Source: Membranipora membranacea (taxonomy: Eukaryota; Bryozoa; Gymnolaemata; Cheilostomatida; Membraniporidae). From it: 64,000 nt of DNA. The translations under genes were made by a program, and so were the position numbers. This document shows positions 34,921 through 61,900 of this stretch, one piece after another. The stretch covers positions 7,378,001-7,442,000 of the forward strand of contig OU612067.1 in the NCBI GenBank assembly GCA_914767715.1, read 5' to 3'. The notes under the pieces are model-generated. The model was not told the DNA's origin. It saw nothing but the letters and a program-made list of their open reading frames with translations, and searched no databases. The stretch's first letter is position 1; every line of letters begins with the position of its first letter.

Positions 34921-37900
34921 TCAAACACTTTCCCCAGATGATGAAGGGGTTGGCCTTCTTTTCTTCTCTCGATATGAATTAATCTGTAACAAATTGGCAG
35001 ATGACATGATTAATTATATTATCTTCTCTAAGACAAGGAAAGACAGCAAATTAGAGTGAAACTCAGGAAGTCATCTTACTCAGTGTGAAAGTAGGTTCAA
35101 ACATCTATTCTCTTTTGGTAATAAACTTCTATACAGCACAGATTCTCAGAAGTTTGGCCAGAGTGTTGATTGATAATACCAAACTACTCATTCTGACATA
35201 CACTAAGTTTCTATTGATCAATTTCCCACTTCTAAATTCGTATGGGTGCAATGGGTCGGGGAATTAACCCAAGCATTCCACACCACAGTCATTGATGTTA
35301 TCCATTCATCCACGCCACCGCATCGTCGCAGTACGGTTGCCCAAATCGAATAAAGGATCACAAACGGATGCGTACCAAATTGAACCAACACTATTTCCAT
35401 CATTCGATAGCTACTGAATTCTGTGAAATTGAAGCATGGGACCTTAGTGATAGGGAAGACTAACAGGTGCTACTATGGATACAGTATGATAATAATAATC
35501 GTATCTGATAATTTCCTACCTGATCTTCGAAGTAGCTGTATAAACTGTATAACACTAAGACAACCAGTAATATCTCTATTACTGTCTTCATAATATCTCT
35601 GGTTTTCTTCCTGAAATCAAATAGCCAAAAAGAATTATATTATAAGCAATGCTAATAATATAATACAATAATATAACACAAAAATTTAATATAATACATG
35701 GTTAATTCTTGTGAACCTGTGTGAGGTCATCATCATAATGTTAATGTGAGACAATCTCTACCAGCATAAACATGTTCCGATTTGGCAACTGTTTTTTAAT
35801 CATTATTCGAAAAACAAAAATGTTGACATCACTATGGAATCATCAGTGTCCCTTCATAAAAACCAACCTGCAGAAAAGCGAATATCCTATAGGAGTTTAG
35901 TTTTCGCGCCATTTAGGATTCGCATTTCCCGTTTTTGCCTAAGTAGCGAAATTGTATGATAGCGGAAATTACTTCCTAAGCAATAAACACCACTCAGTTT
36001 CATAAACAATGTACAATTATACAGGAATTCACCTTCCCTACGCATGCAAGGCAGTGTGGTGTAGTGGTCTAAGTGTCTGCCTTGCAATCAGATGGAGGAT
36101 TGTGCCCTGGGGTCGAATCCCAACTTGGACATTTTTTTAAAATTTTCGCTAGTAAGCCTAGTAGAGAAATTTAATGTATCTTAGATTAAACTCACTCACC
36201 ATAGTAGCGAAAATAAACTCTAGCTAATTTAAATTCCTATTGGGTATTACCAAATACATAGGCAAGAAGACGCAGTAAAGGTGCATTTCAATTGCAACAC
36301 TGAGGGCAAAAGGGATAATCACCACCGAAATGATAAAAAAATAGAAATTTTGACGACAAATTGAACTTTGTCACAATCACATCCCAAGTACTCCTAGTGG
36401 GAGAGGGTAGGTAATGTAAGTTCTGGGTTGGTCATGAGAGCCTTTAGGGAAACTTTCATGATAAACTAGCAGTCATCATACATGTGCTAACGCAATCTGA
36501 CCTGGCCTAGGTTGCACCTAACATTCTGTATTTCAGCATGGAGCCAAACAATTTTGTGACCAATGTTAATTTGATCACTGTACCAACACATGAATTTCAT
36601 CACCCACTTTTAGTTAACAACTGAACTGAACTGCAAATACTCGAGAATTACATCACATGTTTTGAGTGGGTAGCTGTGAAATTAGGCAAGACAGAAATGA
36701 TTTTATTTTCATTTGGGATTGATGCAGAGCAGGAGAATCAGGCCATTGCAAAACTCTAGAAATGATGAATTGTTGCTAACAATAAATTATTATATACATG
36801 TATATATGGCAGCCATACTATTTACGAGTGACAATTGTAGGTCTTCAGCCGCCATTACCATTGTCAGGGTGGGGATTTCCAACCTAATTTATCAGATTGA
36901 CTCAATCTTCCCAGGAATTCCAGCTCAACATTTTATATTGAGAAGCCGCTGACGTTGAGAGACATTACTAGAATACATTCTAAGGTTCGTTGATCAGTTA
37001 CCTCATACACCCCTTAAGAGATTAAGCAATTTGCATAATGGAGTGGGGGGGACGGCACTTATCACCGATGATTGTGCACAAATAGTTGTGTGGGGAGGGG
37101 GGAGGGCATGAGTTGCGTACTTACCATTCTCTAAGCTCAGTCATATGCAGAAAGCGATTTCTATAATCCTGAGGCAACTCAAACTGAGAGCGTATAGGAA
37201 ACATACTCTCATAGAAATCAGCTAACAGAGCTTTTATCTGTGAGTGAGAAACAGAATAAACATTTAAGTACAAGTTCATGAGTTGTAAATAACGGTTATG
37301 AAGAATTAAAATTTTACATTCAGAGTTTAAAAGGCAACCAAGGTTTCAAACATGTTCTCATTGATTGATAGCAGATTGCACCTTCTCCATATAGGGAAAT
37401 AGGGAAAAAGACCAAATCTAATTCGGATGATTATTCAGCCAGAGTTATTGGGAAACATTTCATCCATCAGGTACTCAAACTCAGCTTAAATAGAATACCA
37501 CAGAGCAGTTTCCTGTTCCTGTTATTATTTAGCCTGTATTCTATCATCATTTCAGCAATGTCTTGGAACCTCCCCTAAATTGAAGTGCTACCCAGCTGAG
37601 AGTCAGCAACTACTTTGAGTTTTGCGTCGCGTAATTCACAAAGCTGATGCTGCCTAGCACATAGTTTACTACCCATTAATGCATCGCTGCGAAACCTTGG
37701 TTGCCCTTTAAGAACGATGTGTCTGGACCAACCATCACAAATTATGGATCCATTATTGACAGATATGCCTCCACAACAATTTGATCAAACATGTTTGTGC
37801 AAGTCCTGGAAACATTAACATAAAGTCACCCTTATTGTTTATGATTGAGTAAGATGTCCAATAATTAATTATGTATACTTGCCAAATTCAAGCATAATAA

Positions 37901-40900
37901 CGCTGTATATTTGTTGAGAAAGAAAATATTAAACTTTGAATCACATTGAGGGTTGAGACAGTGACGTGGCCTTGAAGGTTACCTGTTACGTAATGTTGAC
38001 ATGCCCTAACAGAGATTGGGCATTGACATGCCCCTATACATGTATATCACTATTAATTAGTATTCATGGTGTGGTAGGATACAACTGAGACCTGAATTTA
38101 ATTATTGAATTAAATTTGAATAAGCTTAATTGTTACTCAAGTTACTGTACATTATATATAGACCTAATGTGTATACACGAACACTAATATCTCCCCAACC
38201 CCCATCTATCTCACATCTCTGTCCCCCACCCAGCTCCCTCTCTCATCCCCTTCAACAAGATAATACATCAATCACGTTACATATAGGGTACATCAAAGAG
38301 TATCGTGGACAATTCCCTGGCAAATTGGACCAAATCCACTGAGGAATAAATTTTACCTAGAAGTGGAGTGAACTTTTTCATTGGTAAAATATGGCAGAAC
38401 TACTGCAGGACAGGCTACAAGACTGTTCCTTTGGTCCTTTATGTAGTCTTTAAATATCATCGCAGGATCCCTCTAGGCCCTATTTAACATCAATTATGTT
38501 TTATTTAGTCTCCATGGCATTGCAGTAACAGCAGGGCTGCCACAGAATTACCATATACAACAGTACAGATATTGATGTACTGTTGTTACATACATTGCCT
38601 GCATTCTTGCGCTCATTATCCTTACATAAATTAACTGATATTAACTGATATATTTACCTGCATAGCTTCGCTGTTACTGAGATCTATATCATCATTCAGG
38701 CACATAAATTTTCTATAAAACATATATAAGATAAAAAATGAGAGCAGCGGTAATCAAATTACATATTTATGTACCAAAGTAAGTAATACAGTAGGTACGT
38801 ACCCTTCAATTTTTCACTTACAGTATCACCAACGGCCAGTGCTAGTCCTTTCTCATTACACACTCCATACATAAAACTGTATTTAGTCTGAGCCCCCACA
38901 CTCTTGCTCCCCTCCCAGCACCACCCCCCTCTGCCGGGGAAACTGTATCATAAGACCCCATTCTTCTCCCCTCAACTCTTCACACCAATGAGATGTAGTT
39001 CATAACTTACTTGGGATGTCGCCTCATATCATCCAGCTGGCCGACAACTGTAGATAAGTTTGTACGAATCATCTTAAAGTTTATATCTTCATCTCCCATA
39101 ATCTCATACCTGTAGGCAAAGAAGAAATCACTGAATCCCTGTAAGGTATCTAATAGTGAGACATAAACTAGATCAAGTTTAATCCAATTGCCTGCATTCC
39201 AGTTGCTCCCCCTCCACTGGGCATGCCGTCATGACCAGTGGAGGGGGCACAGCTCTGAATGATTGGTCTAGATATAAACCCACACGTCTGCCATGGGCGA
39301 CCAGGTGCCACAGAGGACATTCTACCTGAGGGTTGAGTGACCTGTATCTAGTGTTCATACTCGGCCAATATGTGTCTAATTTAAACTGAAAAAACAACAT
39401 TATTATCCTGACCGAGAGAGGTGGCATTTAAATTCCCCCGAGCCTTGAGTTACTTCCTGTAACCGATCGGGACCAGGATTCATAAAATCTTCCTACTTGT
39501 AAAAACACTGAGTGGTTCCAAGGGTAAGATATATAGAAAAAGTGGGATGGGAGATAACAAACACGATACGAACTCGATACGTGACATTTCACTCTCTGAT
39601 ATCATCAAATTGACAAACAAGTGCAGCAAACATTATTGTTTTCGATGGTCATTTCATCCTTCCACGCCAGCTGACCTCAGATAAGGTGGGCTGCTCCATT
39701 GATAAATATGACCAGGTAACCTGAAGGTAGTAATTTAGTAAAGCTATAAGATGTCTCACCAACCTGTATTTAGGCTTAGGTTCCACTTTTTTCTTTATGA
39801 GATCAAGGAGTGGTCCGCAATTTTTCAACAAAGGCAACGTGACCTGAGGCTAAAAATAAGATAAACACAAATATTATTTGGCTATAACCATAACAGGAAT
39901 TTTTTACGATAATGATGACGCATACCAGTATAAAAAACATTGCACATTGCAGTTACTTGTTCACTTATCCAATCAACGTTATATATTTTGGATGACTTTT
40001 TGAGCAAGCATTTCCAGCAAACTCTAATGCTTGTGTGCCGTGATTTGAGTCATTGCTTGGACACACAAACATATTAAATCATAGTGAGGTGATTTTTATC
40101 TTTCCATTCACTTGTATTTTTTCTAGGGCTATCACACTATTAAAATCACCTCTGCTTAGAAACCCGTCCCCCCCTCACAAGGAAACTCTACAGATTTTCA
40201 CATGGATGAAGGAGGAAATTAACCTGAGACTAACAACAACAAAAATGGTTGTGGCCATAGACTTATAGGCTAAAGACTTAGACTTGACACCATTCCAAGG
40301 GTGATGTAAGAGTTATTTTTCATGGTAATTTACAAACTACAGGTGACCGAATGCCCTCATGTTGGTCTATCAAATATGATTATCAGCAATGAGGAAAAGT
40401 TAGGTTGAACTTTAAAAACACACCAGCATACAGCTATAAGGAAATATGCAAATACTACCAGTCTAGTTTTTTTATGATTCTCAACTGGTCATGCAAGCCT
40501 TCTTTCAAAATCTGAATTCCAAATGATACTGCAATCCTCAAATTGTTGTTGACATTCCGGCTAACTCTTTCACTATGATGAATGATAGACTAGACAGGGT
40601 GTCCTATTACAGAAGTATAAAGGGCCTAAATACCCATTACATCACACCAAAATATGAGACCTAAGGAAACATGAGACCTACATCACTAAAGCTTAACAGT
40701 GATTAACTCCTGCTTGAGGAAATTTATTTTGAGTTGTTCATAACAAAACAAGCCTCGCCTATCTTGTTAATATATATATGAATGGATTATTGTCATCAAT
40801 ATACACATCATCATCATCGTAAATGTGTTGTGTGAAGCAAAAACCAAAATTAATAATCAAATTTTCACACTTTCATTTAAAAATAGAAGGTTCGTGTATT

Positions 40901-43900
40901 GTTGATGAATATTCGCTCATGATACTTGTAGCATGTCTGACCCTGGGCCTTGTGTTTTTCAACTTGGTGTTCAAATAATGAATATTCAAGTAACATTACT
41001 TCATATTCTGTAAATCGTTAGTTAGAGTTAGAGACATCCCGGTAGCTGATTCCTAACTGGGGTATTCTTTGACAAACATGCATATTTTGTTACTGTACTT
41101 TCTCATTTGTTTTTATCCGCTTGAAGACAAATAAAATGTATTGTGCCAGAATATTGCTACTTTTCGTATCATTAGCTCACTGCAGTTATATAATTTAAGC
41201 TAATTCAGCCCAAAATGAGCAATACTTTGCAATGATTACGTTCGTTCGGAATGCACAATTTTTTTTGCAAAGCCATGAGGGGTCACGCCTGTAAAGACTA
41301 ACAACAGCTATTAGCGTTATTGGGCTTAAGAATACAAATGGGCCGCAGATATATGCACTGAAAATGTAAAAAAAATACATATTTTTGCGGTAGGGTACTT
41401 CATGATGATGACATGGGCCAAACATATGATGTATAAAGAAGTCCAAAGATCATCACCCTGAGACCTGTTAGAAATATCGTAAACACAGACCATGTATATT
41501 GTGTGTAAACAATCTGAGTGGAAAGCAGTACCCGCTGAGAGGATATGTATACTGATTACCAAAAGGTCATGACTAAGTCTAAGTCTAAGTCTAAGTCTAA
41601 GTCTAAGTCTAAGTCCAAGTCTAAGCCTTAGTCTAAGCCTTAGTACTTTGGCTGAGGTGACAAGAAACTTAGTGACAAAAAAACTTTTTTTAAATTAGTT
41701 TGACTTGGGACAGATAGAGAAAAGGGCTACTCACCATCTTAGCCTCATAATAACGCTCAGGTTGTATCGGTGGTGGACGTATTTCTTGCTCACTCCAAGG
41801 TAAATGTTTAGAACAGTTGATGATGTGGTTTTCCATCGATTGCAGGCTCTGGTGTAAAAAAAACATAAGATAATATATTAAAGCTTCCGGCCTCATTTAC
41901 ATTAATATAGATGCTTTGGGAATACCGGGTACGTACCAGCTATCACCCAGTATGTAAATAAATGTAAATGTTATGTGTAAAATGTAAAATGTAAAATGTA
42001 AATGGCCTTGCTAACAGCTCTGCGCAACAATCGATAGAGCTGTGTACATAGGTGCCGCACCGCAAAGTATGCCAACAGCTTTTTTGTCAAATATGTTATG
42101 TAGTTTTTGTGTCATACTACATTTTTGAATTTTTTCCTTTTATTCATTTAACAACTACTACATTATAAACCCCATAGTTTCTGCGAGGGTTTCAATAAAA
42201 TCTTATCTTAACTTTAGCACACTCAAACCTTTGAAAGGGTCAAACATGCGGTATCGTCTTAGTCGAGTTTGAATGTAAGTTGTATAGAGCCACCACTATG
42301 GAAAATGGCAATTTAGCAATCAGGTCTGGACTGAGCTGTTCATCAGACTTTCAGATGTTGTACATTATGAAGTTTGTGTCAATGGGATAGACACATTAAA
42401 TATGTAAAGATAGAAAAAAAAATCTGCATTGTCTAATTGTATAGTAGTAAAGTTAGACAAAGGCGGTTAAATTTCAGGTCCAACTTCTGATTCATACACA
42501 CATATACCCATAGCATTGTGTGAGGATGTACAACCTGAGACAGCAGGATTTTAAAAGTACTGTGGAAAAGCATAAAATAAGAAAATACTATCTCTAGTCT
42601 AGACGCTATCATAATAAACCATAAGGTGTCGAACCAAGAACTGTTATCTCAACACTCAACAGTTTGTATACGAAGGCGTATTCAATACAGTTGATAGTCG
42701 GGCAGCCATGAAATATAGCAACTCCGCATCTTATCAACAAAACCAGGTATTTCAAATTTAAATTATCTGTCCCTTGGGTAAAATTTAATGCATGATAATT
42801 AAGGCAGCGTGGTTCTAAAAATTGACACTAGGGACAAACTACTGTGATTTGGTCTAAGTTGCAATACATACTCCTGAAGGCCATAAGTATTTATAGCTAC
42901 TATACTTATAATCAATCACTATTATACAGTACTAAAATGTGAGGTCCAGTTTCTGTGCCATTATATTGTAGTTTATAAGTACACGAAGGGTTGAAAGTGT
43001 CCGGGTTTGGGATATATTTGGTCGTGGCTACGGGAAGTCACACTATTTTTAGGCATAGTGGCAGTTCCTTGTTGAGATTTTTGTCAAGAGAAAACATAAC
43101 AATAGTTTGCTCTACTTATGTTTTAGGCAAATATGCACTGCCAGATAATATGCAGATTAACCAGCTCAAATGTGATAAAGTTACAATTATTAAACAAGAT
43201 TAAATGGCTTCACATTGGTAGAGGGAGGGTATGGATATCAGGTACAGAGGGAGGGCATGGATATCAGGCACAGCCTAGTTAATCCTCTTGAGCTGGCAAC
43301 ATGTTTCAATGTCACAGAGATTTTCTTACCGACACTTTGCGTATATTATGAAGTTATTAGTATGCGTTAATTGGTTTGTTCCAGTAGGTACTAACTAAAG
43401 AGGTTTACAGTGTTGTGGATGTAATGACAGGATGTTTTTATACTCCGAATTTATGGATCTTGTGCATTATATGTGCCAGCAATCTTTTCTACAGGCCTCA
43501 TTAACCTGAGGCTAGGCTAGATATACTTGTGGGGTAATGTTGAAAGGTATGGTCTGTTAAGAACATGTATGAATTGGTGGTGCTTAATAGGATTATTTAC
43601 CTGCAAGTCTAAAGGTGAATCAAATATCCTCGTCGCCATCGTTCTCAACTCTCTGTCTGATAAAACTCTAAAAGTAGAACAAAAAACCAACGGCTGACTC
43701 TGTGAAACATTTACTGATTTGCGCATATTATGCTATCATAGTGTTTCTATGGGTGTGCAATGATGAGTAATATGATTCATTATTTGCGTGCCTTGATGTG
43801 AACCGATGGTACATTAAGCCTCTGAGGCTCAACTCAAGAAATGCACAAACCACCACGCAGTTTGGTTGCTGACTGTTAAAATAACATAAAGCTATACACA

Positions 43901-46900
43901 AAGTCAATAAGTCAGCGCGCCTCGCGTTTCAAATTATCATGCTGAGATTCCAGAAGATGATAAAATGCTTAATAAAATTCCATATCTAATCCATCATATA
44001 CCAGTCACGAACAAAAAAACACATCAACTCTACATAACATCATGCATATAGTACATTCAAGTATCACGTAAAACATTTGTGCTAATTTAAAGACAGTAAG
44101 ATAATGCATTGACACCCATAACAAGATGATTTTGAAATATACATACAATGAGTTGTCTATGTCCATTTCATGTATGAAGTCCACAGCTGTGTTGTTCCTT
44201 TTGCTGTCCATAAGAAAGTAGTAATAGGAGAACGCATACTGCATATCGTTACCACTGCGGATACGATGACTTGAAGTTATGTCCCATTGCGTCTTAAATC
44301 TACAATATATCATCATCATGTCAATATAATAATATTTCATATAGCATAATAGGTAAGGCTGAAGGTAAAAATACCTATTTTTCAATATTGTTGAGTCAAT
44401 TAGGAAATGATAGTGATTGTTTGTAAGCAAAGTAATTTTGGAGGGGATGTTTGCAAAACGATGAATCCTTCTCACATAATGAGATTGCTGCAAAAAGATG
44501 AGCTCATACTAAATAAAGACATAAGCTCCATGTCTGAGCCAAATCAGTATTTTAATTAGTTGTATCAAACTCTGAATGATTCTAAAAATAGAATCTAGAA
44601 CAAAATATTGGTTTTCTGCACATATAAAGTTTGACTGCAAACATTAAACGAAGGTTGTATTTTAAACTTTTAGTTATTTTAAAAACTGTCCCATTATAGT
44701 CCACAAATGAGGAGTTTGATTTCATAGCAAATTTGCGATAAGTTTACATAACAATGCGAGGCAGAATCGATTATGTTTCAAACTAAGAATAATAGGTCGG
44801 AAGTCAAAAGCCACCTATACCAACAGTATAAAACAAGACAGTAATTATGACAATTAGCTTGGAGGGAAGGGGGACAATGGCAAAAAGTTGTGTTTTTATA
44901 TTATCATGTGTATGACACTCGGAAAATAAAAGGCATGGGAATCAAGGGACAACTTTTTTATGAATGGAAAATGCTGAAAAGTTTACTTTAATCCAGCTGG
45001 TTCCAAAGCAAATAGTCTTATTGTGCTCAAACTGTCAGGCCCGGCTTCATATAACAAAACAATAGCAACAAATATTGTTATTGGAGATTGAACATTGTCA
45101 AAAAACTACTATCAATTATAATATAGTAGCTAGGGTATAATACCCCCATTGACTGCACTGTTAGGCCTAGATCCATACAAGGTTATGTTTGAGCTGTTTG
45201 ATACTAGAGTTTCCGTTTGTGTTTAAAAAGCGTCTGTTTACATTTTGCTGTATTTCTGCAGCAGCCACATTTATGTAGAGCAAATGTGGCCTTGGGCAGC
45301 AGTAATAGGCTGTAAAATTTTGACCCCTCACATCGTTCTTACTAAGTGTTCGCACTAGGGCCCGTTTTGAAAGTAGAATTTTCTTGACATCATGTAATAT
45401 GTTTGATTGTGAAATGATAAAGTGTTAGAGATTTAACTCTGAGGTGACCTCCGTTTATATATTAGAGAGGTGTGTGAGACATCCACTACTGACCAATCTC
45501 TCCCAAGTGGTCAATTAGCGAGGCGTTTATTGCAACCCCTTGCAGAAATATCACAATAACATCAGTTTCACTCAGATTTTGCAGCCCAAGTTAATTTGAA
45601 ACGATTCTCTCTCTCTCTCTCTCTCTCTCTCTTGACAGCCCTAATTAACGGCCTCATTAAGCGCAGGTGGCTTGTTTGGGGTGGTGACCATTCTTAACTT
45701 ATGAGGTTATCTGGCAGTGCCATGTTGTTCATAGTTACAATGTTTTGTGATGGCAGGCATCTATCATTATCATCGAAAAGGGAATTTAATAGCTTTTCAT
45801 TTTTGACCAAAATATCGAATCCAACATAAACATCGCATTTGATTTGCGGTTCAAGAGAAGTTTCTCTACATCCCCGTCTAATTTTTTAAGGTTTGTGTGC
45901 TTTGTCCAGCACAAGCTCATAACACTTTACTTCATTCTGTGCCATTAGTTTGAATTAAAGGCAATTTTCAATCAGTTCATATTCAAAATCACTAAGAATA
46001 TGACAACTTCAAGAGTTGTATCCCCATCTTACATTGGGCAGATAACTCATAACTTGCCAAATCATTATCAGTAAAACAAGATCTCAACAGTAAATCTCAA
46101 AACTGAACTTTCATCAATTCATCATTGTTGTATCCAAGATTTTTCTGGCAGTTATGGTAATCATTTTTCATTGAAACTCCTCTAATGCTAAAAAATCCCA
46201 AACACAATAACTTATGATGCATTTGATGAAACATCAGGAAATCGAAATCTGCCATTGAACAATAAAGGGTTGTTACAACTAAATATGAGAAAATAGCACC
46301 TTTTTAACTCATCCCTCTAACTGTTATAAGGGCACATGTGAGTGAGTTTGACGGTGAGATAAACATTAATACATGAATAACTTGATGGTGCTAATCCAAA
46401 CTACACTGACTGAGATATGTGATGGTCATTAATGAAATTCTGATGAGATGCATTGGCGATGAAAAGGTCTTCTCTAGAGACTTGAGGTGCGATCACAGCT
46501 AACAGGAGTGATAACAACACTTACAAGTGTCCTAAAGCTGAGATATGTGATGATCATTAATGTATTTAGGATGAGATGCATGAGAGATAACAAGGTCATC
46601 CCCGAATACTCGGAACGAGATCACAGTTATCTGTGCGAGTGACACTTACGTGCTATACAGATCTCTCATAACTCCTCTGTCGATCATATGTGGGATGTGA
46701 CCAGGTACCTTACGTGACTTAACACCAAACATCTTATTGTATAAATCGTTAACATGGTGCAGTGACTGGGCGAAAGTATCCATGAGGTGTCGCCGTGTTC
46801 CAGAGGTTTTCACGGAATATGTCTGTTTTCTCCATTCAGTATCACGCTTCTGTAAAATATACCAAAGCGTGTGTTCCAAGCTAATCAAAGGATTGAGGGA

Positions 46901-49900
46901 GGGAGACTAGGGTGCCTACATTCAACAACATTATGCTCAGGAGCATAGACTAATCATGGCGTTGTGAAGGTGTTTAGTCAGGTTGAGGAAGGAGTCAGCT
47001 TGTATTTGTTTAGATTCAATCCACTCCGAATCCTGCCAACTTAAGCGCTTCATGTTTGGTGAAGCCACAAAAATCCTTCACAATAAGAACTCCACAGTGT
47101 TCTCTGGTATTCTATTCGTGTATGAGGGAAACCAAGCTTTCCATTCAGCATGACTGCGTTACATAAAACCTGGCTTTATTAGCAAAATTTGACCTTTCCT
47201 CATGCTTGTTTCGACTGTTAATTATAATTCCAAGGCTGAGACATGAGGCAGGGTTCCGTTACAAAGCTGTCACCTCAGACAGGTCAATCTGAACGAGGCA
47301 GGGTACCTGAACACACAGACAAGTAACCTAAGTGCTCAGCAGAAGCTGCGGTTGCCTGATACGGTAAGAGGCTTGAATCTCAACACTCCAACATGGCTGA
47401 CTGAAAATTTAACATCCAACAAAATACAGTTCCTCCTTTCATACCTTCACCAACTTCCTGATGTCCTGTGTGTTCTCCCAGGGTAAAAATCCCATCTCTT
47501 GTTCCTGATCCACATACTGCTTGAGCTGCCTTGCTTTGAATGTTTCAGTCTCCTTTACATCACCTCTAACATGATTTAGTTTAGCACCATCTCCTGGCAC
47601 TTGAGGTTGGTTAGCTGGCACGTCAGGATTCATCCCAAAGTTCTGCCTGATACTATAATTTTGAGCAAATTGTTCATTGTCATTGGCAAACTGTATATTG
47701 TTCCCCTCATTACCCAGGATGTTTTGTGCTTTATCTTGTTGCACTATGTTATTGTCTAGCTGCTGCTGATTTGGTTGTTGTTGTTGCTGCTGCACTAACT
47801 GGTCCTGCTGTACCACATTTTGGTTTTGTTGCATAGATTGTTCATGTTGTCGCTCTGCCTGTTGTTGCATTGGTTGTTGTTGCCCAAGTTGTTGCTGGTG
47901 TTCTGTTTGTCGTTGCTCAGGTTTTTCCTGTTGTTTCACTGCCTGTTGTTGCACTATTTGTTGCTGCTCTGCCTTATGTTGCACTGTTTGTTGTTGCCCT
48001 GCCTGTTGTTGCACTGGTTGTTGCTGTATAGTTTGTTGTTGTTGCCCAAGTTGTTGATCTGGCTGATGTTGCTCAGATTGTTCCTGTTGTTTCACCGCCT
48101 GTTGTTGCACTGTTTGTTGTTGCTCTGCCTGTTGTTGCACTGTGTGTTGTTGCCCTGCCTGTTGTTGCACTGGTTGTTGTTGTATGGTTTGTTGTTGTTG
48201 CCCAAGTTGTTGTTGTTGTTCTGCCTGTTGTTGCATTGGCTGTTGCTGCATCGGCTGTTGCTGCACTGGTTGTTGTTGCACTGGCTGTTGTTGCATATGC
48301 TGTTGTTGCCCAAGTTGCTGTTGTTGTTCTGGTTGTTGTTGCACTGGCTGTTGGTGCTCAGGTTGTTCCTGTTGATTCACTGCTTGTTGTTGCATTGGCT
48401 GATTTTGTTCTACCAGTTCCTGCTGCTGCAGTGGCTGATTTTGTTGTTGTTGTCTGACTGGAAGTTCCTGCTGTGCTGTTATTTGTTGCATGATTTGACG
48501 CTGTTCTGGTGCTCGCTGTATGACTGGCTGTTGAGGAGCCTGCTGATCATAGGCAGGTACATTGTGTTCACCTTGATGTTGAGGTAACTCTGGTTGATTT
48601 TGTTGGAATAGCGGTTGTTGAACCACCGGCTGATGATTGTTAATGTTTGGTTCAACATTTTCTGGCTGCATTTGTCCGCCATTTTGTAACACATTTTGCC
48701 CCTTTTGCTGTTGATTTAATTTTGCTAGTTTTATCTTTTGAGGATTAATTCCATGGTTCAAGTCCTGCTTTAAGCCAGACAACAGGAGAGCCATCTTCTT
48801 CTTCAACCCTTTGAGCGTTATCTCACCTGTTAATATATAAAAATTTCTTATATTCCTCATCATTTTCAGGGATTGATGTGCCCTATTCCAAAAAAAAGAA
48901 GAGGGCAACTATTTAGTGAGGATAGGAACATCAAGAACCTCAGCACAAGGCTGCAGTTACTTGCTATTATAGTAATGCCCATACGCGTTTTTATCAAGTA
49001 TGTCACACAGTAAAGTGATTTAAGAAAACCATGAAGTCAAGATTCTGTGACTTTGGAGAATAATCAAAATGGTTCTTAGTTTTTTTTCCTAGGCGACAAA
49101 AGTAGACCACACTTGTGAAAACAATTCTTGCTGTTGGTTATTTAGCACTGCTATAAGTTGTTTGTTTGCTACTTAAAATTGTGCACTTTTTTTTAGACTT
49201 CAGAAGCAACATAGAAAGGATACCGCACATGATGAAAATATTGACATAATGAAATTTAGAATCCTCCAATTCATGGGTTCAAATACAAGAAATTTTTTTC
49301 TTTCTTGTCACTTTTATTTTTGAATTTTATTTCATTAAAGTTATTGTTGAGAATTTGCCACAATCAAATGATGAATGGAGTTGATATTCAAAAAAATTTC
49401 AATCGAGTAATTTAAAATTCAATGGAACTTTTACTCCTGTAGGATACAGTTCTGCTGAGGATTTATATATTCTGTAAATTGTTCAAGTGATGTAAATAAA
49501 AGCCATATTAAGATTAGATTCAGTTGGAGGGTTGCTGGGTTATGCAAGCATCATATATATATTATATATACATTTTTATTGCAACAACCATCATTCGAAG
49601 ATGTTCTCCCTGATGTGCAAAGAAACCAAAACAAAAACCAATCATTCTATATGCATTCTTGATCCGTTGGAACAATAAACATTGCAGAGTATATAAATGA
49701 ATCCCACCCCCACTTGATGAAATAATACTGTTTAAGATGAGAAGCGGGTTATCTTTTAACTGAAAAATTGCTAATAAAACATCAAGAAGACACCCTAGAA
49801 GTCATATAAAATCATTGCAGATGTTGCAACTGGAATTATTATAATGTTCTTTTGGGTTGAAGCTTGATTAATCATCATATTAGGCTTCTCATTTAGAGTC

Positions 49901-52900
49901 TACCAAAATACAAAAGCAATATATAATCAGACGGCTAGTTCTGCAATATTTTTACCATGAAAAGATTCATAGCACTTTTTGGTAAAAATTATATATAGTG
50001 TCAGAAATTCTCCCTTCCTGCTCAGCTATGATGCCAACATGGGTTATTTACTGTATAAGCCCAATAACTTGCCACTTCTATATATTTTCAAGTATTAATT
50101 TTTTCCACATGAATAAATAAATGCATTTTCATTGTCAGGTGACAATGCACTACAGAAGACCTTCGTTGAGAAGGTCAGCCTTTACAGTTCTCTAAAGTAA
50201 ATAGAAGAGGCAGTTTACTGGGCCTGTACAGTACATACCTTACGTTTACATCATAGATGAGCAAAGGGACAACTCTATCCATAATTCTAACCCAGACAAA
50301 CTTTGCATTTTCTCACAGTAATAATTTGTCATAACTACAGCTGTTCTAGCTACCTGACTATTACATGCTTCCGTCCTTTGGTAGTCTTTAAATGGCTATG
50401 TGGTATGTGGGCTGAGCATGTTTCATGATAAACTAAGTTAAATCGGTAGAAAATGCACTCAGACTCCGCACACCCTGTCAGGTAAAATCACGTACTTCCC
50501 TCCTCTCACTCACGTTAATTTTCTCTGTACAGACTAGCACAGTCACTGCCTGACAGGCTATGTTTACAACACACTTAAACAGTAAACATCTAGATCGGAC
50601 TTTTAGCGTGGAATATCTGATCGTTGGAGTCAATTATTTACAATCTAAGATTATCACATTATATCAAAAAGATTCATACATACAATAAACTCCATCTCTA
50701 AAAATAAATTTTTTTTTATGCAAACGATTTGCCTCCGATAAAAACAGCCTCTTCTATCTTATTTTCTTCATCAAATTATTGTAATTTTTAGCTTTTCAAG
50801 TTCAGTAGCTTGGCAGGGTTCAGAAAGTCAATGTTTCCCAACCCCCCCCCTCCTCCACCTGCTTCGCTACCATTAAAGAGAAACACAGACCATTATTAAC
50901 CAATTACGAAAGTAATCAATTCCTTCTATAGGGCTGTCACCTCCCCATCTGCATAGACTGGGGCGGTCACTGCCTGAGAGGCTATGTTTAAACCACTCTT
51001 ACACAAAAAATATTGAGGGTACACCAGGAGCATGTGAATCTATGATCGTAAGAGACATTGTTATCGAAGTACCCTTTGGGTGCCCCCTCATTAAAAAGCT
51101 TGACTTTGGGTCCTTACACCGTATTTATTCTGGAGATCCTCGTGCAACATGAAGTGATTCATGCCCCATCGATTATGGACACATATATATGAGTGTAACA
51201 TTAAGACCATCAACATGTCTATGATTAGGGCGCATGATGTAATAGACCTACCGCTGTCATGCTGTGCTCTGATAATCTCTATTTCTGATCTTACATCTAC
51301 TGGATATGCTGACGCATCGATATTATCAAAGTCTACGGAATCCACATCTATTTCTGTCTCGACAGGTTTAGCTTTCATAGCAGACGGCTCGCTATTGAAA
51401 ATGATGATGAAATTTCATGACAATAGCAACACCATTACAGACAATCTAATGCACTCGTAATGCTTTTAAAATTAAAAATCATGTCAGTCTTACAAGTTCA
51501 GTCTTGAAAATAGACCCCACAGTCTACTAGTAGGTCATGGCTCCGTGTCAAATGGTCATAAACAATATGCTGTGTGGGGGGATAGATATTGAAGTCTGTG
51601 CAAAATACAAGGGGACTGATAACACGAGGGAAGTGAGACATAACTTCAATCTCAAATGCATATGCAGTGTAATCCTCTTAATTCAGACTTTATAATTCAG
51701 AAATCCTGTTCATTTAGACAAAGGACATTGGTCCCGTCAGCTAAATTTCAACACAATTTAGCGCCATATAATTCAAACTCTGCTTAATGAGAACTAAACT
51801 TGGTGGTCTCCCGAGGTTTGAATTAAGTGCACTGTAAGATAAAATTATGTGACTTACAGAAACTGTGGAGGTACATCCTGAAATACAAACTTAGGCTCTT
51901 CAGTGACAGGTGCTGCTGCGACCTTTGAACTCTCGCCTCCAGCATTCTCATTATGATCAATAATAACATTACTGAGTGCTGTGTTACCGGAGTTTGTTGT
52001 TATCAGGAAGGTGTACTGTAAAAGAAAAATAAATTATTACTTTAAATTCCTCCAGTTGTTGGTCGGTTGATGTTGAAAATATCAACATGTTCTATGATAT
52101 ATCCACAATCCCACAGCCAAAAAATTCAAATTTTCCTGATGTTAAAATTTTTTTCTTAAACTTTTCTTAAAATTTTTGTGTTGCCGCTCAAAAATCTTTA
52201 GGCTCAAACAAGTTGGCCAAGGGTCATTTATCCATTATAAAAATATTACTAATCAATTAACTGCATAAAAAACTTCCCATTCTTCTCCAAATACATCGCT
52301 GTGTCACATCTGTATTTGAGTTATTTTGAGGATTTTTTAACCATGAAAAAAAAACTTTCTTCAATGTCAATAGTTTGATGGAGCACTAATTTAACGTTAA
52401 ATGTAATACAAAATAATTTGCATAAAAAACTTATATTCATAAGCACTCACGATTTCTTTAGTGATGCCGTCTCCGAATGTCACATTGACAGAGAATGTAG
52501 TTGTGTTATGATCCTCCACCAGTACCACAGTTAGTACTTTGTATTTATTGCTGACGGCTGCCACTCTAACATCAGGTCTATCCTGATAGGACGCCTCACT
52601 AACCTTCGCTGACGACAATGTACTAAAGTTTAGATACGCCTCATTTATACCTGTGTGTAGAAATGAAACAATAATAAATGATCAGAATATACTCTTTTTT
52701 TTGATACTTTATCGTACACCATGTACAAAAGAAGGGCAATATTCGTAAAATAAAATGATTCAGCTTTTACTCTAGCCGATCCATATAATATAAAAGTGTC
52801 GTTTCAGGCCACCATAGTGCTATCTAAAACTATCGTCCACAAATTTAAGCTGAAGTTCCAATGTCAAATTCTCAACGGGCAACCAAATCCTATTGGGTTT

Positions 52901-55900
52901 TCTATGGAAATGTGATTGGTCCAATGTTTATAACTCGGTTGTTAACTATAATGTTAGTAAATCTATTTCTGAGAAATTTGTATAATTTGTCTTTTGTTTG
53001 ATCGGTAGAGGCTTTTCTTATGTACGGTGTAAACTTGATTAGTGAAAAATATATGTTTGGAGCCAAATCCCAACAGGAGCTTAAGTCTAACAAACCTGTA
53101 GGAATGGCGTACGATTTGATGCCTCTGATCATCTCGATGCTGTACAAGTTGTGAAAGTTAGTGACACCACAGTCTCCTGCATCGAACCCACACACTTTAA
53201 CATTACACGCCTACAATTATAAGAAATCTTATAAGTGCGATCAAGTATCGTATAACATAATATGAATAACATCATGTCACACACTGTCACGAACAACATC
53301 TTAGTGGAATCGGCATGTCAATGGGAGTGTGTTTGAGCTACGTGCGGATCACGGAGCTCAATGAGTAATTGTTGTTGTAAATTTATGACATCAGAAATGA
53401 AATCATGTTTTAAATGCGTAAGTTTGATCGTTCAAATGACATCATTTAGGGTTAGAAGATCGAATTTCTTTATTAGAGACTTATTGTTCTCTTTTTTGGT
53501 TCCTCAGTGATGTAGACGCAAAACAGAGAGTGCACACATATCAAATAAGGCATAATATTTGACCTGCATATAACTTGATTCTGAAAGCAAAGCTTGAATG
53601 ACTAGAGTTAAGAACCAAGGCATTTCTAATTTATAAAAAATTTCATTTTTAAATCCATGTAGACCAAGCCAAAACTAAAGTTAATCAAAGTGCTATGTAT
53701 TAGAAGAGATCAAAGCCCCTAGTATGCATTTTATTCTAGGGTTATACTGTTTTCGGTCTCACTTTTTACCTGACTAGATCAATTTTCATCCCATTTGCTT
53801 GCATTCTAGGTTATTTCGATTCTACAGGTGACCCGGCGTCGGCTCAAAGGGGTCAAATCCAAATGCAAGCAAAATGGATCGTGCTTGATTGACTGTCTGC
53901 CTATAACGCTAAGTGGAGCGATAAAAATGATGTGTATTTTCTCAAGAAAGTTGAACTCAGTTTTGAAGATATGAGGACCCTATCAAAAAGGCTGATACAT
54001 AATTGCATCCGGTATACAAATGACTTCTATGAAAAACCCTCTTTCGGTCAGTAGGTAGGAAGTCCTGCCTGCTTTCTAAGAAATGACATTACAAGAAAGC
54101 TTTTACAAAAGTCCTCATCCACTCTAGTTAGTTAAATGCAATCTCGGTCATGCAACAGGTCAATAAACAACAATCTCGTATCCTTTTATGTGTTTTTTGG
54201 AAAAGACATAATAAAATTCTTAGGTGTGTGGTCTGTCATCAAGTAAACTAATCATCCAATAACTAGCCCCACTTTCCAGCTCTCAGTCTAAATTTAAGTG
54301 TTTTCTGGACATAAAATTAGCCTTAAATCTTCAACGCAGGAGCACCCACCTGATCACAGTATTTATCAGCTATCCAAGCATTTGAGCACCCAGGGGCACA
54401 CATAGCTGCAAGAAATAAATAAAGAAAAGAATAATTTTGTCATCACTAAATGGAAATTGTGAGGACAAACATACAGTTATATCAGAGAAAAATTCAAAAC
54501 GAGCAGCCACCACAATTTCAGGCGTCCTTGATATATCAAATGGTGAAGTATAATAATGCCACTAGCTCTTAGTTGCCGATACTGTATTAACTCTTCTAAC
54601 CTATGATGAGGCAACTCCTATTTAGTAACAAACCGGCCAATTCGCTATCTTGAGTTGCTATAATCAAATTATCAAACACTAAAATCTTCGAAAACCAGCC
54701 AAATTTTCTGCAAAAAGAAAATATCAGATTTGATTTGTAGGAATTTATACCAGAGACAGCAATGGAAACCAGTTACTCCCACGTACAGCATGTAAGACAG
54801 GGAAAATATGTCTCATTGCCGACACTTACTCATATCAGAGTCATATCTGTTATTCCAGTTACTATTCCAGTCATTACCTGCATTAAAGGCAGGTACACCA
54901 CCTGTAATCATAAATATAAACCATTTATGTGTAATACTTGTTATTATTAAATGATATAGATGTCAATAAAGCTATAAAAAAAAATTAGTAATGGAAATTA
55001 ATTCTAGCCAACCATAAATGCACTGATACTAATTTAGGTTGCAAATTTGATTGTGCGATATCAACACAATCTGTGATAATATGACATCAACACCACACTG
55101 CTTGCAGATCGTCTCTCTGCACCGTAGTGTTTGAATTAATCCAAATGTGCGTGAGTTCCCAGTCCTCCAGTTCGGGTCGGGTGACTTATCAGTTTGAGAA
55201 CTCAAGCACGTTTGGATTAATCCAAACGCTACGGTGCAAAGATAACCAACCTGAATTTATTGGTGATCATGCGCAAAGTACATCAACACAGTCTGCAGTG
55301 ATATGAAATCACCATTGTCTGTGCTGATATAACAACGCCATAATTTATGCTGATGTGACATCATCATTATCTGCGATGATATGACATCATCATTATCTGT
55401 GATGATATGACATCACCATTATCTGTGATGATGTGACATCACCATTATCTGTGATGATATGACATCATCATTATCTGTGATGATATGACATCACGCGTGT
55501 GAGAATCCCAGGGTTCTAATTATCCTGAAATTGATGCATCTCAAGTTGAGCCTATATTATCATGGTGACCTAACCAAATCACACTTATGCTCAAAACTTG
55601 ACATATATTATACAGAATAGAAGACATCAGTAAAAAAAACTATTATCCGTCCAATTTTCTTGTGAGGTTTTCATATCTTTGTGATGCTTTACTACAATTT
55701 GAAATGGTGTAGATGTGGGGGAGATAATTCCTGATATTCTGAGTTATACATACCAGCACAATCACCAGCGTCGTACCCACACTCACTGACATTACAGGCC
55801 TTATCACAGTATCCATCTTTGATCCAAGACTGAGGACAACCGGGAGCGCAGTCAGGAATATTCCAAGATAAATATACCTGAGAAAACGAACAATAGATAG

Positions 55901-58900
55901 ATATACCTGACAAAGTCACGTAATGATTAATATACCTGAGATACTTAGTAAATTTTACTTTTGACCTTATGTCAGCAATATTCAACGTTCTCAACCAATG
56001 ACAGCAGTCAAGAGCAGTCGCCAAATTTGAGACATTCGGGAATAAAGTTATATTGGTGTTCACCCTAACAAGTGTAAGTGATTATTTCCATCTAGACGTT
56101 CTATAACCATATTAATTACAATGCGAAGGTGTTAGAGTTGTAGTATCATGGAATATCTTTAACTCTTTAACTCTAATATGAAAAATCTTTTAAATACACA
56201 CTCCGGAGCATGATTTATATTTACACCATAGCTTCCTATCAAAATGAGAAATAGAATGATTTTTGATGCATATTATAGCCTTTCTTTCTAAAAATTAACC
56301 AATTACAAGTATTTTATATAAAGTCAAGCAGTGCGTGTATTCAGTTCTGTTCAGTTTATCTGTATAATAACAGAATTTCAGTAACCAGACCTAAATTTGA
56401 ACCAAACACCTATCCTGAAAATTGTAAATACTGTTTGTAGCCTTGAATACGTGCACATCAGTGAGAGAATCGTGACTGTAAAATTTAGCATCAGTTATTT
56501 ACAACCCTCAGATCCTGATGTTCCTCATCACAGGACTGTTCCGTTGGGATAGGCAACTGTTGGGATAGGCAGCTGTTGGGATAGGCAGCTGTTGGGATAG
56601 GTAGCTGTTGGGATAGGCAGCTTTTATTGCCTACGTGCCAGTGATTCATGTGTACTGGTGGGTTATCCTGTTGGGGGTTGTAAATATCTCATACTATGCC
56701 ACGATTTGTACCGGGGGCATGCTCATTTACCGAAAAGCAAATATGCATAGCAACTGAAAGTATTTATAAGGTTGATACAACATATATATAGTTATTTTAT
56801 TCGTATGTGACTCTACCAATCCGAACAGCATGGTTCATGAGGAACCGCCACTTCCGAGGGCTGAAAACAAGTAATGCTAAATATTGAAGTGACGATTTGT
56901 GACACTGGCGCTCCCATGTTTACTGGTAAGCACATATTTGTGGCAACCAAAAGTATTTATAATTGTTAAACATAGTAACAAAAATAATATCAGCTATATA
57001 TATATATATATATAGTTCAAAGACCACTGACCTTTTGACCTTTGCTGTGGGTAAAGAAGTCATCAGGCCAGACCTGAGCGCCAAACATGACGTCATCGTT
57101 GAGATAGATAAACTTCTCAGAGAGTCCGGGTATTCTGTGTATGTGGCTCTCTATGGCTGGTGAGCTGAACGTCGGCAGGTGACTTTTATTTGTAAATATA
57201 TCCTAGAAAATGAAGAAAGCACATCCTTTTACTTTTTTTTTTACAACACGGAACGATTAACATAAATTGTTAGATAGTAGTCAGATATATAATATAATAT
57301 ATATTTATGCATTGTGATATAGTAGTCAGATATATTATTATAGAGTAGTCAGTTACCACCAATATGCACCAAAGAAAAACAGGACAGTCTCATATTTTCT
57401 GGCATGAGGTGCGTATACTACACTGCTACTGAGAAAACAAGTCGCTATGCGAGTAGAAACCATCGCAGAACCTCTCATTCATGATACGCTCATCAGCGCC
57501 ACTCACAGCTAATATATTAACGAGTTAATAATAGTATATTTCTAATTATTTGTTGGTATTATTATTATTAATTTTATGCTGGCATTATTGTCTCTTAGTT
57601 GAAGTTTAGAAAGAAAAGAAGATCAGTTGTAAGTCACATATAACAGAATGGCAACTTCCTGGGCTTCAAATAACAACTGGGATAGTCAGGCACTCTTGTT
57701 GTTATCCATCTGTGACTCAAAACTCGACAGTCAATAACTTTGACTTATTTCGGTCAGAGTAACTCAAGGCCGCATCCAAGTTTAGCATCCGAATTCAAAG
57801 CAAATCACCACAAGCAACTGACCCTACAGTTTTATAAGATATACATAATAATATTATCTATATAGGAAAATCCCACAAGAACAAAGATGTTAAACCCTTT
57901 ATCTTGTTCAGCAGTGAACAATTTGGCAATAATAGCAAAAATTCCACATCATCATCATGGAATTGAAGTGAATATTATGTTATATTAGTTAGAACATACC
58001 TTCACCGCCACATTCATCGTGTGTTTCACATCATCAACCCTATAACTATGTTTGCAAAAATTTACGAAAGAAAAAAAGTGAAGAAAAATGGCTTTGTCTT
58101 ACCTCGTGAGTGATGACAGTTACTCGGCTATTATCTAAGTTTAGCCAGTGTGGGATTTGACCATTTGTCACTATAAATATCTGCCGTACCCATGGAGCAT
58201 ACTGCTCAAGGGATCTAAGGCTATATCTCAGCTCCTCGTTATCCTCGAACCTACTGGCAGTGAGATCTAACTCACGCCCATCGCTCTACAAATCACAAAC
58301 AGCAGAGAAATCTGATAAAACATGAGTTCCACACAAAGGAACATTCTGTTAGTGCTAGACCTGACATTGATGGGAACGCAATATTTTCAGAGGAAATAAA
58401 TTGTTGACAGAGTTTTATAACCTGTTCAAAAACTTTAGTCAATCAGAGGCTTTCTAGACCACAGTAGTTAAAATCATATCAATGCCAGATTTACATGATG
58501 ATGATTCAGCGCCGCTGCCTTGATAATTATGAATAAAAATCTATAACCAGTAGTTTTGATGACAACACATTTCAGGCCTACAATGTTTCAAACTACCCTG
58601 TAGACACAAAAGGAAGATATATTTGCCCCTTCCGCCACCTTAATTGGCCTGGTGTCAATCGATTGGAAGTAGGCAACTACAAGCTTACATAGTACATCAT
58701 TGCATTGTTAGGGGTTTGGTGGTTGCACCCACAATAAGATGTTACTTACATAGCTGAGATCGTAGACTAAGTTTGCCTGACTGAACTGTAGGTATCTACC
58801 ATCCAGAGTAAAGTTGAAGCCGAAGCCCCTGAGAGTCTGAGCAGAGCGACTCGTGGATGTACGGAACACTCCTACTTTACCCACCATCTCAATCTGATAA

Positions 58901-61900
58901 AATAAAACATCCAGGTTACCCAGCCAGCTCTTCAATATTCAGTGTCCCAAGCCAGCAGATAAACATCAAATGTACACAGATAGCTCATAAATACCAAGTG
59001 AACCAATCTAGCAAGGCATAATTGTTCCCTATTATATGAAGATTCTCATATATATTGCCATTGCACTATTTCACACGTTACATTACTCATATCAAATGCA
59101 TGCTCCAAATCTTACATCACCCGCATAATCCCTTACTTACACCAAAGACATACAAATTACTTACATGATTCACACGTCCTTATACTTACATTATTAACAT
59201 GCTACTTTACTTACATCAAACACACACTTTATTACTTACATCAAACACATGCTCCATGACATGTTTAGGTAGGACCTTAGATACCTCTTCCACAGTGTAC
59301 TCTTTCTTAAACCCTGATACTAATACTACTGTAGGCTGAAGCTTAGAGTTTGGTATCGTAATGTCCGATGTCTGTGATATACAGAGAGAATTGATATATT
59401 ACTACTAAGATACAGCATAACTCTACATACTGTACAGGAAACTTGCCTGCTTTTTGTTCAAGGACAGGTAACTACCAATACCATGTTTATTATATCACCG
59501 AACACAACTATTGAAGGTGATATAATAAACCATATCCACAGCATATAGAGATCGCAGCCATTGTTGCAATTGATGCAATTATATGACCTGTCGCTTCATG
59601 CTATGAATTTCTCATGTCAGCTAATCCGGATGATAGTCAGATTAGAAGATGCTAAAAGGTCATAATAATGCTAGCAAACTATAAACTTCGGGAGTGTAGT
59701 GTACTTTAGCAGTAATTGCCTAAAATAAAGCATCAGCCAATCAGGTTAGTTGTGCCACAATACAATGACAATTACTGTAGTACAGGTAGCAATTATTTGA
59801 ATAACATATATTATGCCATTTACTGTCTTGTATTTCGTGTAATACTCACAAAATAAGCTTGTTTAGCTTGGTAGGTGATACCTTGAGAGATGAAACTGAC
59901 ATTCATAGCTTTCTGAACTGCAAAATAAATAGTTATTTTAAATTCAGAGCGATCTTTCCAGCCCAATATTTCAACAGGAAGCCTTAAAAATCTCTTCACC
60001 TAATAGGAGGTAGACCAATGAGGGAGTTCATTGGGTAGACGTAGACAGATTAGATAGCAGCATCAATCATCAACATGAGGCTTTCTTAAACACAACAATT
60101 ATTGGAATTCACATGTAGGGCATGATATATGATTAAGTAGCAGTAGGCTTGTAGCAGCTACACAAATCAGGTAAACTAGCCTAAATGAAGACTGCAATAT
60201 ACCGCACATTGATCATCGACATCACCGACAGGGCTCCCACAAATAGTCTCCTAGTAATTAATAGACAATATTCTGGCGATATGTCAGAACATACAAATAA
60301 TATTGAGAGGCCATCCCCATAATACCATATCACAGTACTTCTGGTTGTATGAAGCAATGAGGTAGGTAGTATGGCCAATCTGTTTGGGGCCTCTCTAGCC
60401 ATTCCATTCTGAATCAGTAAAAGTGAACTATCATTGCTTATATTCGAGAGCCTTCTGGGTTTATAAAAATCGATTGTCCAAAAGATTCCATTTTGGGATA
60501 AGAGCTGCGCTTACCTTCAAGTTTTTGTGATGCTAATAAAAGCAAGCAATCAAATATGCATATTCAAACAGTCAAATGTGTATCAACAAAAACACAGGGA
60601 GGTCATAAATTCAGTGGGCAGCAAAACTTCTTTCAAATGCCAAACTAACTTGCATGAATGCATGGACAAAATTAGTTAATTGATTTGATCAGGTTGTATG
60701 GTTTTTTGTGCAGAGTTTTTTTCTATCAAAAATTCTCTGGAGTTTACCTATGATGTCAATGTAAAGAAGTCCAGGACATTTTGTAGGTGACGTACTGGGC
60801 AGAAAGATAAAACAAGTTACAGGCCTGGGTATTATTCTTAGCAGGTGCAGTTATACTGTGGAAGGGGAGGTGAGAGGGAGAGTTAGAGGGAGGGGAGGTG
60901 AGAGGGAGAGTTAGGGAGAGGGAGGTGAGAGGGAGAGTTAGGGGGAGGGGAGGTGAGAGGGAGAGTTAGGGGGAGGGGAGGTGAGAGGGAGAGTTAGGGG
61001 GAGGGGAGGTGAGAGGGAGAGTTAGAGGGAGGGGAGGGGAGGTGAGAGGGAGGTGAGAGGGAGAGTTAGGGGGAGGGGAGGGGAGGTGAGAGGGGGACTT
61101 ACCGTCCTGTTTAGTGATGAAGTGGAGCAGAGTAAAGTTAGATCTGAGATCATCTGAGCTTTTACTCTCTATCTTAACTATAGATCTATAGAACTGTGAC
61201 TGAGACTCCAGATAGTCCAGTGTAAAGTGAGCAGGTAAATCATTAGGAAATACGGCAAGTGGCGCTTTTACACAGTTAGCATACTGGCAAGTAGTTGGGC
61301 TACAAATATAAAACTAACATGGTCACATTTGTTGATGAGAGTGCTATCCTGACAACACTCAATTTAAACCATTTTAAAGTTGCCTTAAACCAGATTTGAC
61401 ATCAACTGTCTGAGATAGATTTAGAAGAAGCGACATCATGGCAATCTTTCTCACTATACACGGATATTCCACACTCACTTTTTTCTGTCTTTGGAACTGG
61501 AGCTGCAAATGAGAAATAATATTGATAAATTTCAAAGGAATAACACGTGAAATAATTACCAAATTCAAACAAGCCACCGACAAACATGACAAAAACAGAC
61601 TTGACTAGTCAATCAGTGTAACAAACCAAATGATGGAGTCTACCAAATTTTTTTATTTCGCATTGAAAGAATCTTGCACCAGGTAGAAAAAAACTCAAAC
61701 AAATTCTGTCAAAGGTATAAACAACAACTGTTGGCCCAGCACTTCTCTACATACTTGGTTGTTTTGGTTTGGTCCTCTAGCTCAGCCTTAGCCTTTCTGA
61801 GAGCAGCTAGTAATTCTGGATCTGTACCATTGACCCATGTATATACTACATCTATTGGTACAGGCAGACACAGCCTGTATAATAACATTAATTATATATC

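What the first reader, a model, noticed from the sequence alone, without database searches (positions are those of the whole stretch)
47445..48826. GNPTAB with about 330 residues of glutamine-rich repeat in its spacer
Seen: a single 1382-bp in-frame exon with GNPTAB-matching sequence at both ends and Q-rich 5-mers between, including a roughly 52-residue duplicated block. Known: in vertebrates this spacer is short and not Q-rich, and it lies just before the site-1 protease cleavage. Inference: the repeat expanded in this lineage and may act as a long flexible tether or affect processing or oligomerisation of a lysosome-targeting enzyme. I know of no polyQ-type tract described in this family.
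Basis: partly seen in the sequence, partly recalled or inferred. Interest (0 to 1): 0.78.

Follow-up and report, generated by a model that had tools for sequence, protein, structure and literature searches.

The report
Glutamine-rich spacer in bryozoan GNPTAB
In a bryozoan, an intact gene for the Golgi enzyme that addresses proteins to lysosomes carries a long glutamine-rich stretch in a loosely constrained part of the protein; similar stretches have arisen more than once in other animals at the same spot, so it is most likely a tolerated repeat expansion with little effect on the enzyme.

Summary
Exon 17 of an intact, single-copy, 27-exon GNPTAB gene on the minus strand runs exactly 47445..48826. 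It carries most of a 485-residue spacer (35% Q), with a 345-residue Q-dense core (155 Q) of 5-residue repeats and an adjacent 52-residue tandem duplication. The window is bryozoan, probably Membranipora membranacea. Watersipora, the only named bryozoan relative found, has a 195-residue, 9% Q spacer, so the expansion probably arose inside Bryozoa. It is not unique. Of 273 GNPTAB proteins measured, 10 have a stretch with at least 12 Q in 60, in this spacer region and not elsewhere; Aplysia, Owenia and the acorn worm Glandiceps are among them. On a tree of 47 selected proteins, built without the spacer, the Q-dense label needs 8 changes. The PWE-to-cleavage segment keeps its normal length (36 residues), and both RxLx motifs are present. 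The best-supported reading is a tolerated repeat expansion of a probably disordered loop between the substrate-recognition modules and the site-1-protease site. A selected function is not shown. My searches of the held papers listed no description of such tracts.

The parts
34921..63374 (-). whole GNPTAB gene, 27 exons, 1484 aa, from ATG to stop
   Evidence: exon chain with AG/GT sites at the internal junctions, fitting phases and no internal stop; 17 of 17 matches of P0001 in the own genome fall here. First and last exons were chosen by eye
47445..48826 (-). exon 17 (1382 bp) carrying the Q-rich spacer up to shortly after GFLPWE
   Evidence: no GTRAGN donor and no acceptor with a pyrimidine tract inside
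47709..48743 (-). Q-dense core, 345 residues, 155 Q (110 CAA, 45 CAG)
48225..48353 (-). most regular pentad stretch (QQQ + P/other + M/V/other)
48051..48206 (-). first copy of the 52-residue block
47895..48050 (-). second, adjacent copy of the 52-residue block
   Evidence: TRF period 156
48705..48826 (-). exon-17 part of the DMAP_binding-like segment (it starts in exon 16, 51252..51312)
   Evidence: PF06464 19.0 bits, E 0.0026, below the cut-off of 27
47520..47531 (-). RQLK, upstream RxLx motif (possible second S1P site)
   Evidence: RxLx within 60 aa ahead of PWE in 260 of 272 proteins, 33% in shuffles
47475..47492 (-). GFLPWE, start of the conserved fixed-length segment before the S1P site
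46781..46792 (-). RHLM, main site-1-protease motif, followed by DTF, in exon 18
   Evidence: and the RxLx tally

Best explanation
This is the ordinary single-copy GNPTAB gene of a bryozoan. The hypervariable stretch between its DMAP-like recognition segment and the conserved PWE segment before the S1P site has grown by tandem duplication of CAA/CAG-rich 15-base units and of a 156-base block. Shown: an intact open gene, a long Q-rich spacer absent from the nearest bryozoan, Q-dense spacers in other lineages, and fixed length downstream. Inferred: the stretch is a disordered loop whose length and composition are only loosely constrained, so polar Q-rich repeats are tolerated. The loop would hold the Notch/DMAP recognition modules more loosely to the catalytic core. 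S1P would still cut downstream, and the tract would stay in the alpha chain (as a free tail if the upstream RQLK is also cut).
For: Intact 27-exon gene, single copy. Watersipora, its 100/100 sister on the tree, has 195 aa and 9% Q. The PWE-to-S1P distance is 31-43 in 272 of 273 proteins, 36 here, while the whole spacer ranges 91-485 in the 204 of 216 measured. Stretches with at least 12 Q in 60: 10 of 273 proteins inside the spacer region, 0 outside. The label needs 8 changes on a tree of 47 selected proteins built without the spacer. Other lineages carry different repeats here: Liolophura a PVQDGKES-type unit, Owenia LLQNNQEPLQQNQQ. AlphaFold2 mean pLDDT is 49.9. In the human structure the N1-S3 sequence is drawn as missing, and a construct that lacks N1-to-S1P and S1 is hyperactive (PMC11418123, passages).
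Against: The frame is kept open although 6.4% of single-base changes in the core would make a stop. Third-position differences are in excess in the duplication (6 of 8, p = 0.02). So the residues seem to be under some selection beyond pure tolerance. Q is the polar residue that most often becomes dense here (7 of 273 at 15 or more per 60, against K 2, P 2, N 1, E 1), which could mean that Q itself is favoured. One AlphaFold2 helix inside the tract reaches pLDDT about 84, against full disorder.
Confidence: 0.68

Rival explanations
1. The Q-rich tract is functional: as a long, sticky or extended loop it changes hydrolase capture, auto-inhibition or clustering of the enzyme in the Golgi.
For: Frame kept open and third-position excess; Q-dense spacers recur in bryozoan, annelid, mollusc and hemichordate proteins; in human PTase the N1-to-S1P region holds recognition modules and an auto-inhibitory motif (PMC11418123).
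Against: Absent in the sister Watersipora and in most proteins measured (263 of 273 have no stretch with 12 Q in 60). No functional data. Repeat slippage alone can give recurrence.
Confidence: 0.2
2. The repeat is wholly or partly removed by splicing, so the protein is ordinary.
For: The exon is far longer than the other 26 (1382 bp against 24-200 bp); no transcript was available here.
Against: No donor- or acceptor-like site inside by my simple rules; frame open through the 345-codon core; third-position excess. P0016, with a Q-rich spacer, comes from a 4286-base contig for 1286 aa, that is, with little room for introns, as a transcript would be (inferred).
Confidence: 0.07
3. The tract length is an assembly artefact in a repeat.
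For: Tandem 156-bp units are a place where assemblies can err.
Against: If the genome is M. membranacea it was sequenced with HiFi long reads (PMC10290214, passages), which span 1.4 kb. Copies differ (17 of 156 bases).
Confidence: 0.04

Closest known systems
GNPTAB of Watersipora subatra (P0001)
   Same: Orthologue; 64% identity over the N-terminal part and 72% over the C-terminal part; same RQL motif, GFLPWE and S1P site
   Different: Spacer 195 aa, 9% Q, longest Q run 1
GNPTAB of Owenia fusiformis (P0161)
   Same: Q/N-rich tandem repeat at the same place, 428-aa spacer, 24% Q
   Different: 14-residue LLQNNQEPLQQNQQ unit, not pentads; annelid; the gene model lacks the N-terminus
GNPTAB of Aplysia californica (P0021)
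   Same: Q-rich stretch at the same place, up to 37 Q per 60 residues against 38 here
   Different: Shorter (322-aa spacer, 20.5% Q), irregular with longer Q runs, mollusc
GNPTAB of Glandiceps talaboti (P0221)
   Same: Long Q-enriched spacer (388 aa, 13% Q)
   Different: Irregular, mixed with K/E/D; hemichordate; Ptychodera has 6% Q
Human GNPTAB (PDB 7S05, 7S06; variant S1S3 9BGG)
   Same: Same domain order; N1-S3 sequence drawn as missing in the structure; S1P at Lys928/Asp929 (PMC11418123, passages); GRKLQ ahead of GFLPWE as in the window's RQLK (alignment)
   Different: No Q-rich tract in the aligned chain

Membership tests
GNPTAB (GlcNAc-1-phosphotransferase alpha/beta) | Stealth CR1, CR2 and CR3 | tested here: met
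   47.9, 163.3 and 63.9 bits, all above cut-off; the regulatory domain PF18440 reaches 25.4 bits, just below its cut-off of 26.4
GNPTAB (GlcNAc-1-phosphotransferase alpha/beta) | Stealth CR4 | tested here: met
   P0001 residues 1104-1163 match exon 25 at 60%; in P0001 CR4 is 1099-1155. Not scanned by Pfam in the window protein itself
GNPTAB (GlcNAc-1-phosphotransferase alpha/beta) | two Notch (LNR) repeats | tested here: inconclusive
   first 34.8 bits; the second was cut at an exon end in the scan (10.7 bits, below cut-off), but the joined protein holds a second LNR-like cysteine-rich stretch (read by eye)
GNPTAB (GlcNAc-1-phosphotransferase alpha/beta) | DMAP_binding segment | tested here: inconclusive
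   19.0 bits, cut-off 27; not listed when scanned in an 843-aa block. P0021 and P0122 do not show it either
GNPTAB (GlcNAc-1-phosphotransferase alpha/beta) | S1P motif RxLx before DTF/DSL | tested here: met
   RHLM|DTF; the motif stands ahead of the site in 197 of the 205 proteins tallied for it
GNPTAB (GlcNAc-1-phosphotransferase alpha/beta) | enzyme activity on lysosomal hydrolases | not testable with these tools
   needs expression; MPR, gamma-subunit and NAGPA genes could not be searched (tool busy)
polyQ (homopolymer CAG) tract | long uninterrupted Q run | tested here: not met
   longest run 6 Q; CAA 110, CAG 45 in the core
disordered Q-rich low-complexity linker | low complexity, no stable fold, no cysteine, few aromatics | tested here: inconclusive
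   0 C and 2 aromatics in 345; 272 of 460 residues below pLDDT 50 but one helix near 84, from only 14 sequences

The most novel reading that the evidence does not exclude
Bilaterian GNPTABs repeatedly evolve a glutamine-rich loop at one fixed place, between the recognition modules and the S1P segment, because Q-rich loops tune reach or auto-inhibition of the enzyme; the bryozoan here is the extreme case and a natural experiment on loop length.
Probability: 0.15. Interest if true: 0.6.

Novelty: new variant of a known kind. Interest (0 to 1): 0.33.

Why it matters
It shows that the region that carries substrate recognition and auto-inhibition in the human enzyme has a sub-segment whose length ranges from about 90 to nearly 500 residues among the animals measured, while the last 36 or so residues before the protease site hardly vary in length. 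This separates the free part from the constrained part and names natural variants (the bryozoan here, Owenia, Aplysia) for testing what the loop does. As a repeat expansion it is a known kind of event, and no disease link or new mechanism is shown.

Tried and rejected
Rejected: homopolymer polyQ (longest run 6). Cryptic intron (no inner splice-like sites by a simple scan). A known RNA family in the exon (0 matches at gathering score in 46600..49200). Paralogue or pseudogene (single copy, intact). A single old origin of Q-rich spacers (8 label changes for 10 labelled of 47 rows, 8 forced by starred branches. Gains and losses cannot be told apart, and 86 of 500 shuffles were as low, so the label is not clearly clustered). 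Misleading rows: P0121 (Bulinus) scored high, probably because its gene model repeats part of the C-terminal half. P0071's 401-aa 'spacer' is a false left anchor in the Notch region; it was left in those medians.

Led nowhere: counterparts of the M6P pathway (PF00878, PF13015, PF09992) and a count of similar Q-rich tracts in the own genome did not complete. Three papers (PMC4498157, PMC3690890, PMC4825028) are not held. The 2015 report of an alternative S1P site was seen only as a title in a reference list; its exact site is recalled and not used as evidence. Paper searches with GNPTAB + polyglutamine (8 papers), GNPTAB + glutamine-rich (3) and GlcNAc-1-phosphotransferase + mollusc (3) gave, by their listings, nothing on this tract.

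Full report
Observation. The exon lies on the minus strand, 48826 to 47445. I rebuilt the gene around it: 27 exons from 63374 to 34921, every internal junction AG/GT, phases consistent, 1484 aa without an internal stop. Stealth CR1, CR2, CR3 and the first Notch repeat pass Pfam cut-offs. The P0001 search of the own genome lists 17 exon-sized matches, all in this gene, so it looks single copy. Exon 17 encodes 460 complete codons with 167 Q. The dense core is 345 residues with 155 Q, 27 P and 24 V, no cysteine, 2 aromatic residues and no N-glycosylation sequon; the only sequon in the exon is NYS, after the core.

More than chance. In the core the coding frame has no stop in 345 codons, while the two other minus frames have 12 each; the three plus frames have 7, 18 and 6, with one open stretch of 262 codons. 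Because 155 codons are CAA or CAG, 6.4% of single-base changes would create a stop. In simulation (kappa 2, 400 runs per value), 5% random change leaves the frame open in 1.5% of runs and 1% change in 44%. In the best 44-codon part of the duplication, 6 of 8 differences are at third positions (p = 0.02); lags 5 and 10 give p = 0.027 and 0.019, and lags 36 and 32 are not significant (0.21, 0.088); these comparisons overlap. This argues, modestly, that the tract is translated and that its residues are kept by selection. No donor- or acceptor-like site was found inside.

Source. The best relative in the two searches with window protein is the bryozoan Watersipora subatra (taxonomy); the third search used an alignment of other species. 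The own genome has 339,339,785 bases in 18 contigs, and the window is contig C3, 7378001-7442000. The published Membranipora membranacea assembly has 339,374,674 bp in 21 scaffolds (PMC10290214, abstract and passages). I infer that species from size and kinship; it was not shown by a name.

Comparison. Of 216 proteins (215 fetched plus the window), 204 could be measured from the DMAP-like start to the S1P site. The 203 others have a median of 191 aa (91-428) and a median of 6% Q (maximum 24%); the window has 485 aa and 35%. Twelve had no anchor, among them Aplysia and Liolophura, which were read later (322 aa, 20.5% Q; 291 aa, 10% Q). Vertebrate-type rows alone: 225 of 228 measured, median 202 aa, 10-90% 159-217, Q at most 10%. 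In 273 of 276 proteins I looked for the 60-residue stretch richest in Q. Ten have at least 12 Q inside the 260 aa ahead of the S1P site (490 for the window), and none has that many outside. The ten are the window (38), Aplysia (37), Owenia (28), unnamed P0016 (20), Glandiceps (18), Pecten (18), Bradybaena (16), hake (13), Ylistrum (12) and unnamed P0017 (12). As a control, other residues at 15 or more per 60 inside the region: L 38 proteins, G 3, K 2, P 2, N 1, E 1, Q 7; outside, G 206, L 13, S 3, E 1, R 1, Q 0. So Q is not the only residue that can become dense, but it is the most frequent polar one in the spacer. The sample is the best-scoring lists only (120 listed of 1340, 696 and 1505 hits), so rates should not be read as rates over all animals.

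Independent origins. A tree of 47 proteins that I selected, built without the spacer (860 of 991 columns), joins the window and Watersipora with 100/100 support; unnamed P0002 (127 aa, 1.6% Q) stands next, also 100/100. The Q-dense label (10 rows) needs 8 changes, 8 of them forced by starred branches; the shuffled mean is 9.2 and 86 of 500 shuffles were as low. Units differ: pentads here, a 14-mer in Owenia, irregular in Aplysia and Glandiceps, and non-Q repeats in Liolophura. Watersipora against the window places this expansion inside Bryozoa, unless Watersipora lost it.

Anatomy and mechanism. Order: Notch repeats, DMAP-like segment (19 bits, below cut-off; Watersipora 29.3), Q-rich tract, 59 residues with 10% Q, RQLK, GFLPWE, RHLM|DTF. 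The PWE-to-S1P distance is 31-43 in 272 of 273 proteins, median 36, window 36. RxLx within 60 aa ahead of PWE occurs in 260 of 272 proteins against 33% in shuffled letters; in the window and Watersipora it sits at the same 16-residue distance. In the human enzyme the N1-S3 stretch is drawn as missing in the structure. [quoted passage not shown] Notch and DMAP are credited with hydrolase recognition (PMC11418123: passages; Discussion in full). From this I infer a loop anchored at both ends on the catalytic core, in which the tract adds slack. Shown: position, an open and probably coding exon, recurrence, fixed downstream length. Inferred: disorder (pLDDT 49.9, only 14 sequences; one helix at about 84), tolerance and slack.

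Verdict. A real and extreme case of a recurrent, probably tolerated expansion in a known enzyme. Paper searches listed nothing that describes Q-rich tracts in GNPTAB; this rests on listings and covers only the held open-licence library.

Noticed in passing
window 47520..47531 and other animals' GNPTAB: A second RxLx motif just ahead of GFLPWE is present in 260 of 272 proteins (33% in shuffles), which fits a conserved additional S1P-type site.
   Followed up: partly
P0004 (Liolophura sinensis), residues in the spacer: The chiton spacer holds tandem KDPVQDGKESRLG-type units, a repeat expansion at the same place but not Q-rich.
   Followed up: no
window 23839..25056 (+): Single open frame of 406 aa with weak sulfotransferase matches (Sulfotransfer_3 26.1 bits, cut-off 27).
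   Followed up: no
window 6679..16253 (-): Probable exons of a Major Facilitator transporter gene: two pieces with MFS_1 matches below cut-off (20.5 and 15.7 bits, cut-off 33.4).
   Followed up: no
window 659..943 (-): Sushi repeat (31.1 bits, above cut-off), part of another gene near the window's start.
   Followed up: no
window 60863..61094: G-rich minisatellite (28-base unit, 6.7 copies) in the intron right behind GNPTAB exon 5.
   Followed up: no
P0121 (Bulinus truncatus): Gene model in which part of the C-terminal half stands twice, also at the N-terminus; probably a mis-joined model.
   Followed up: no
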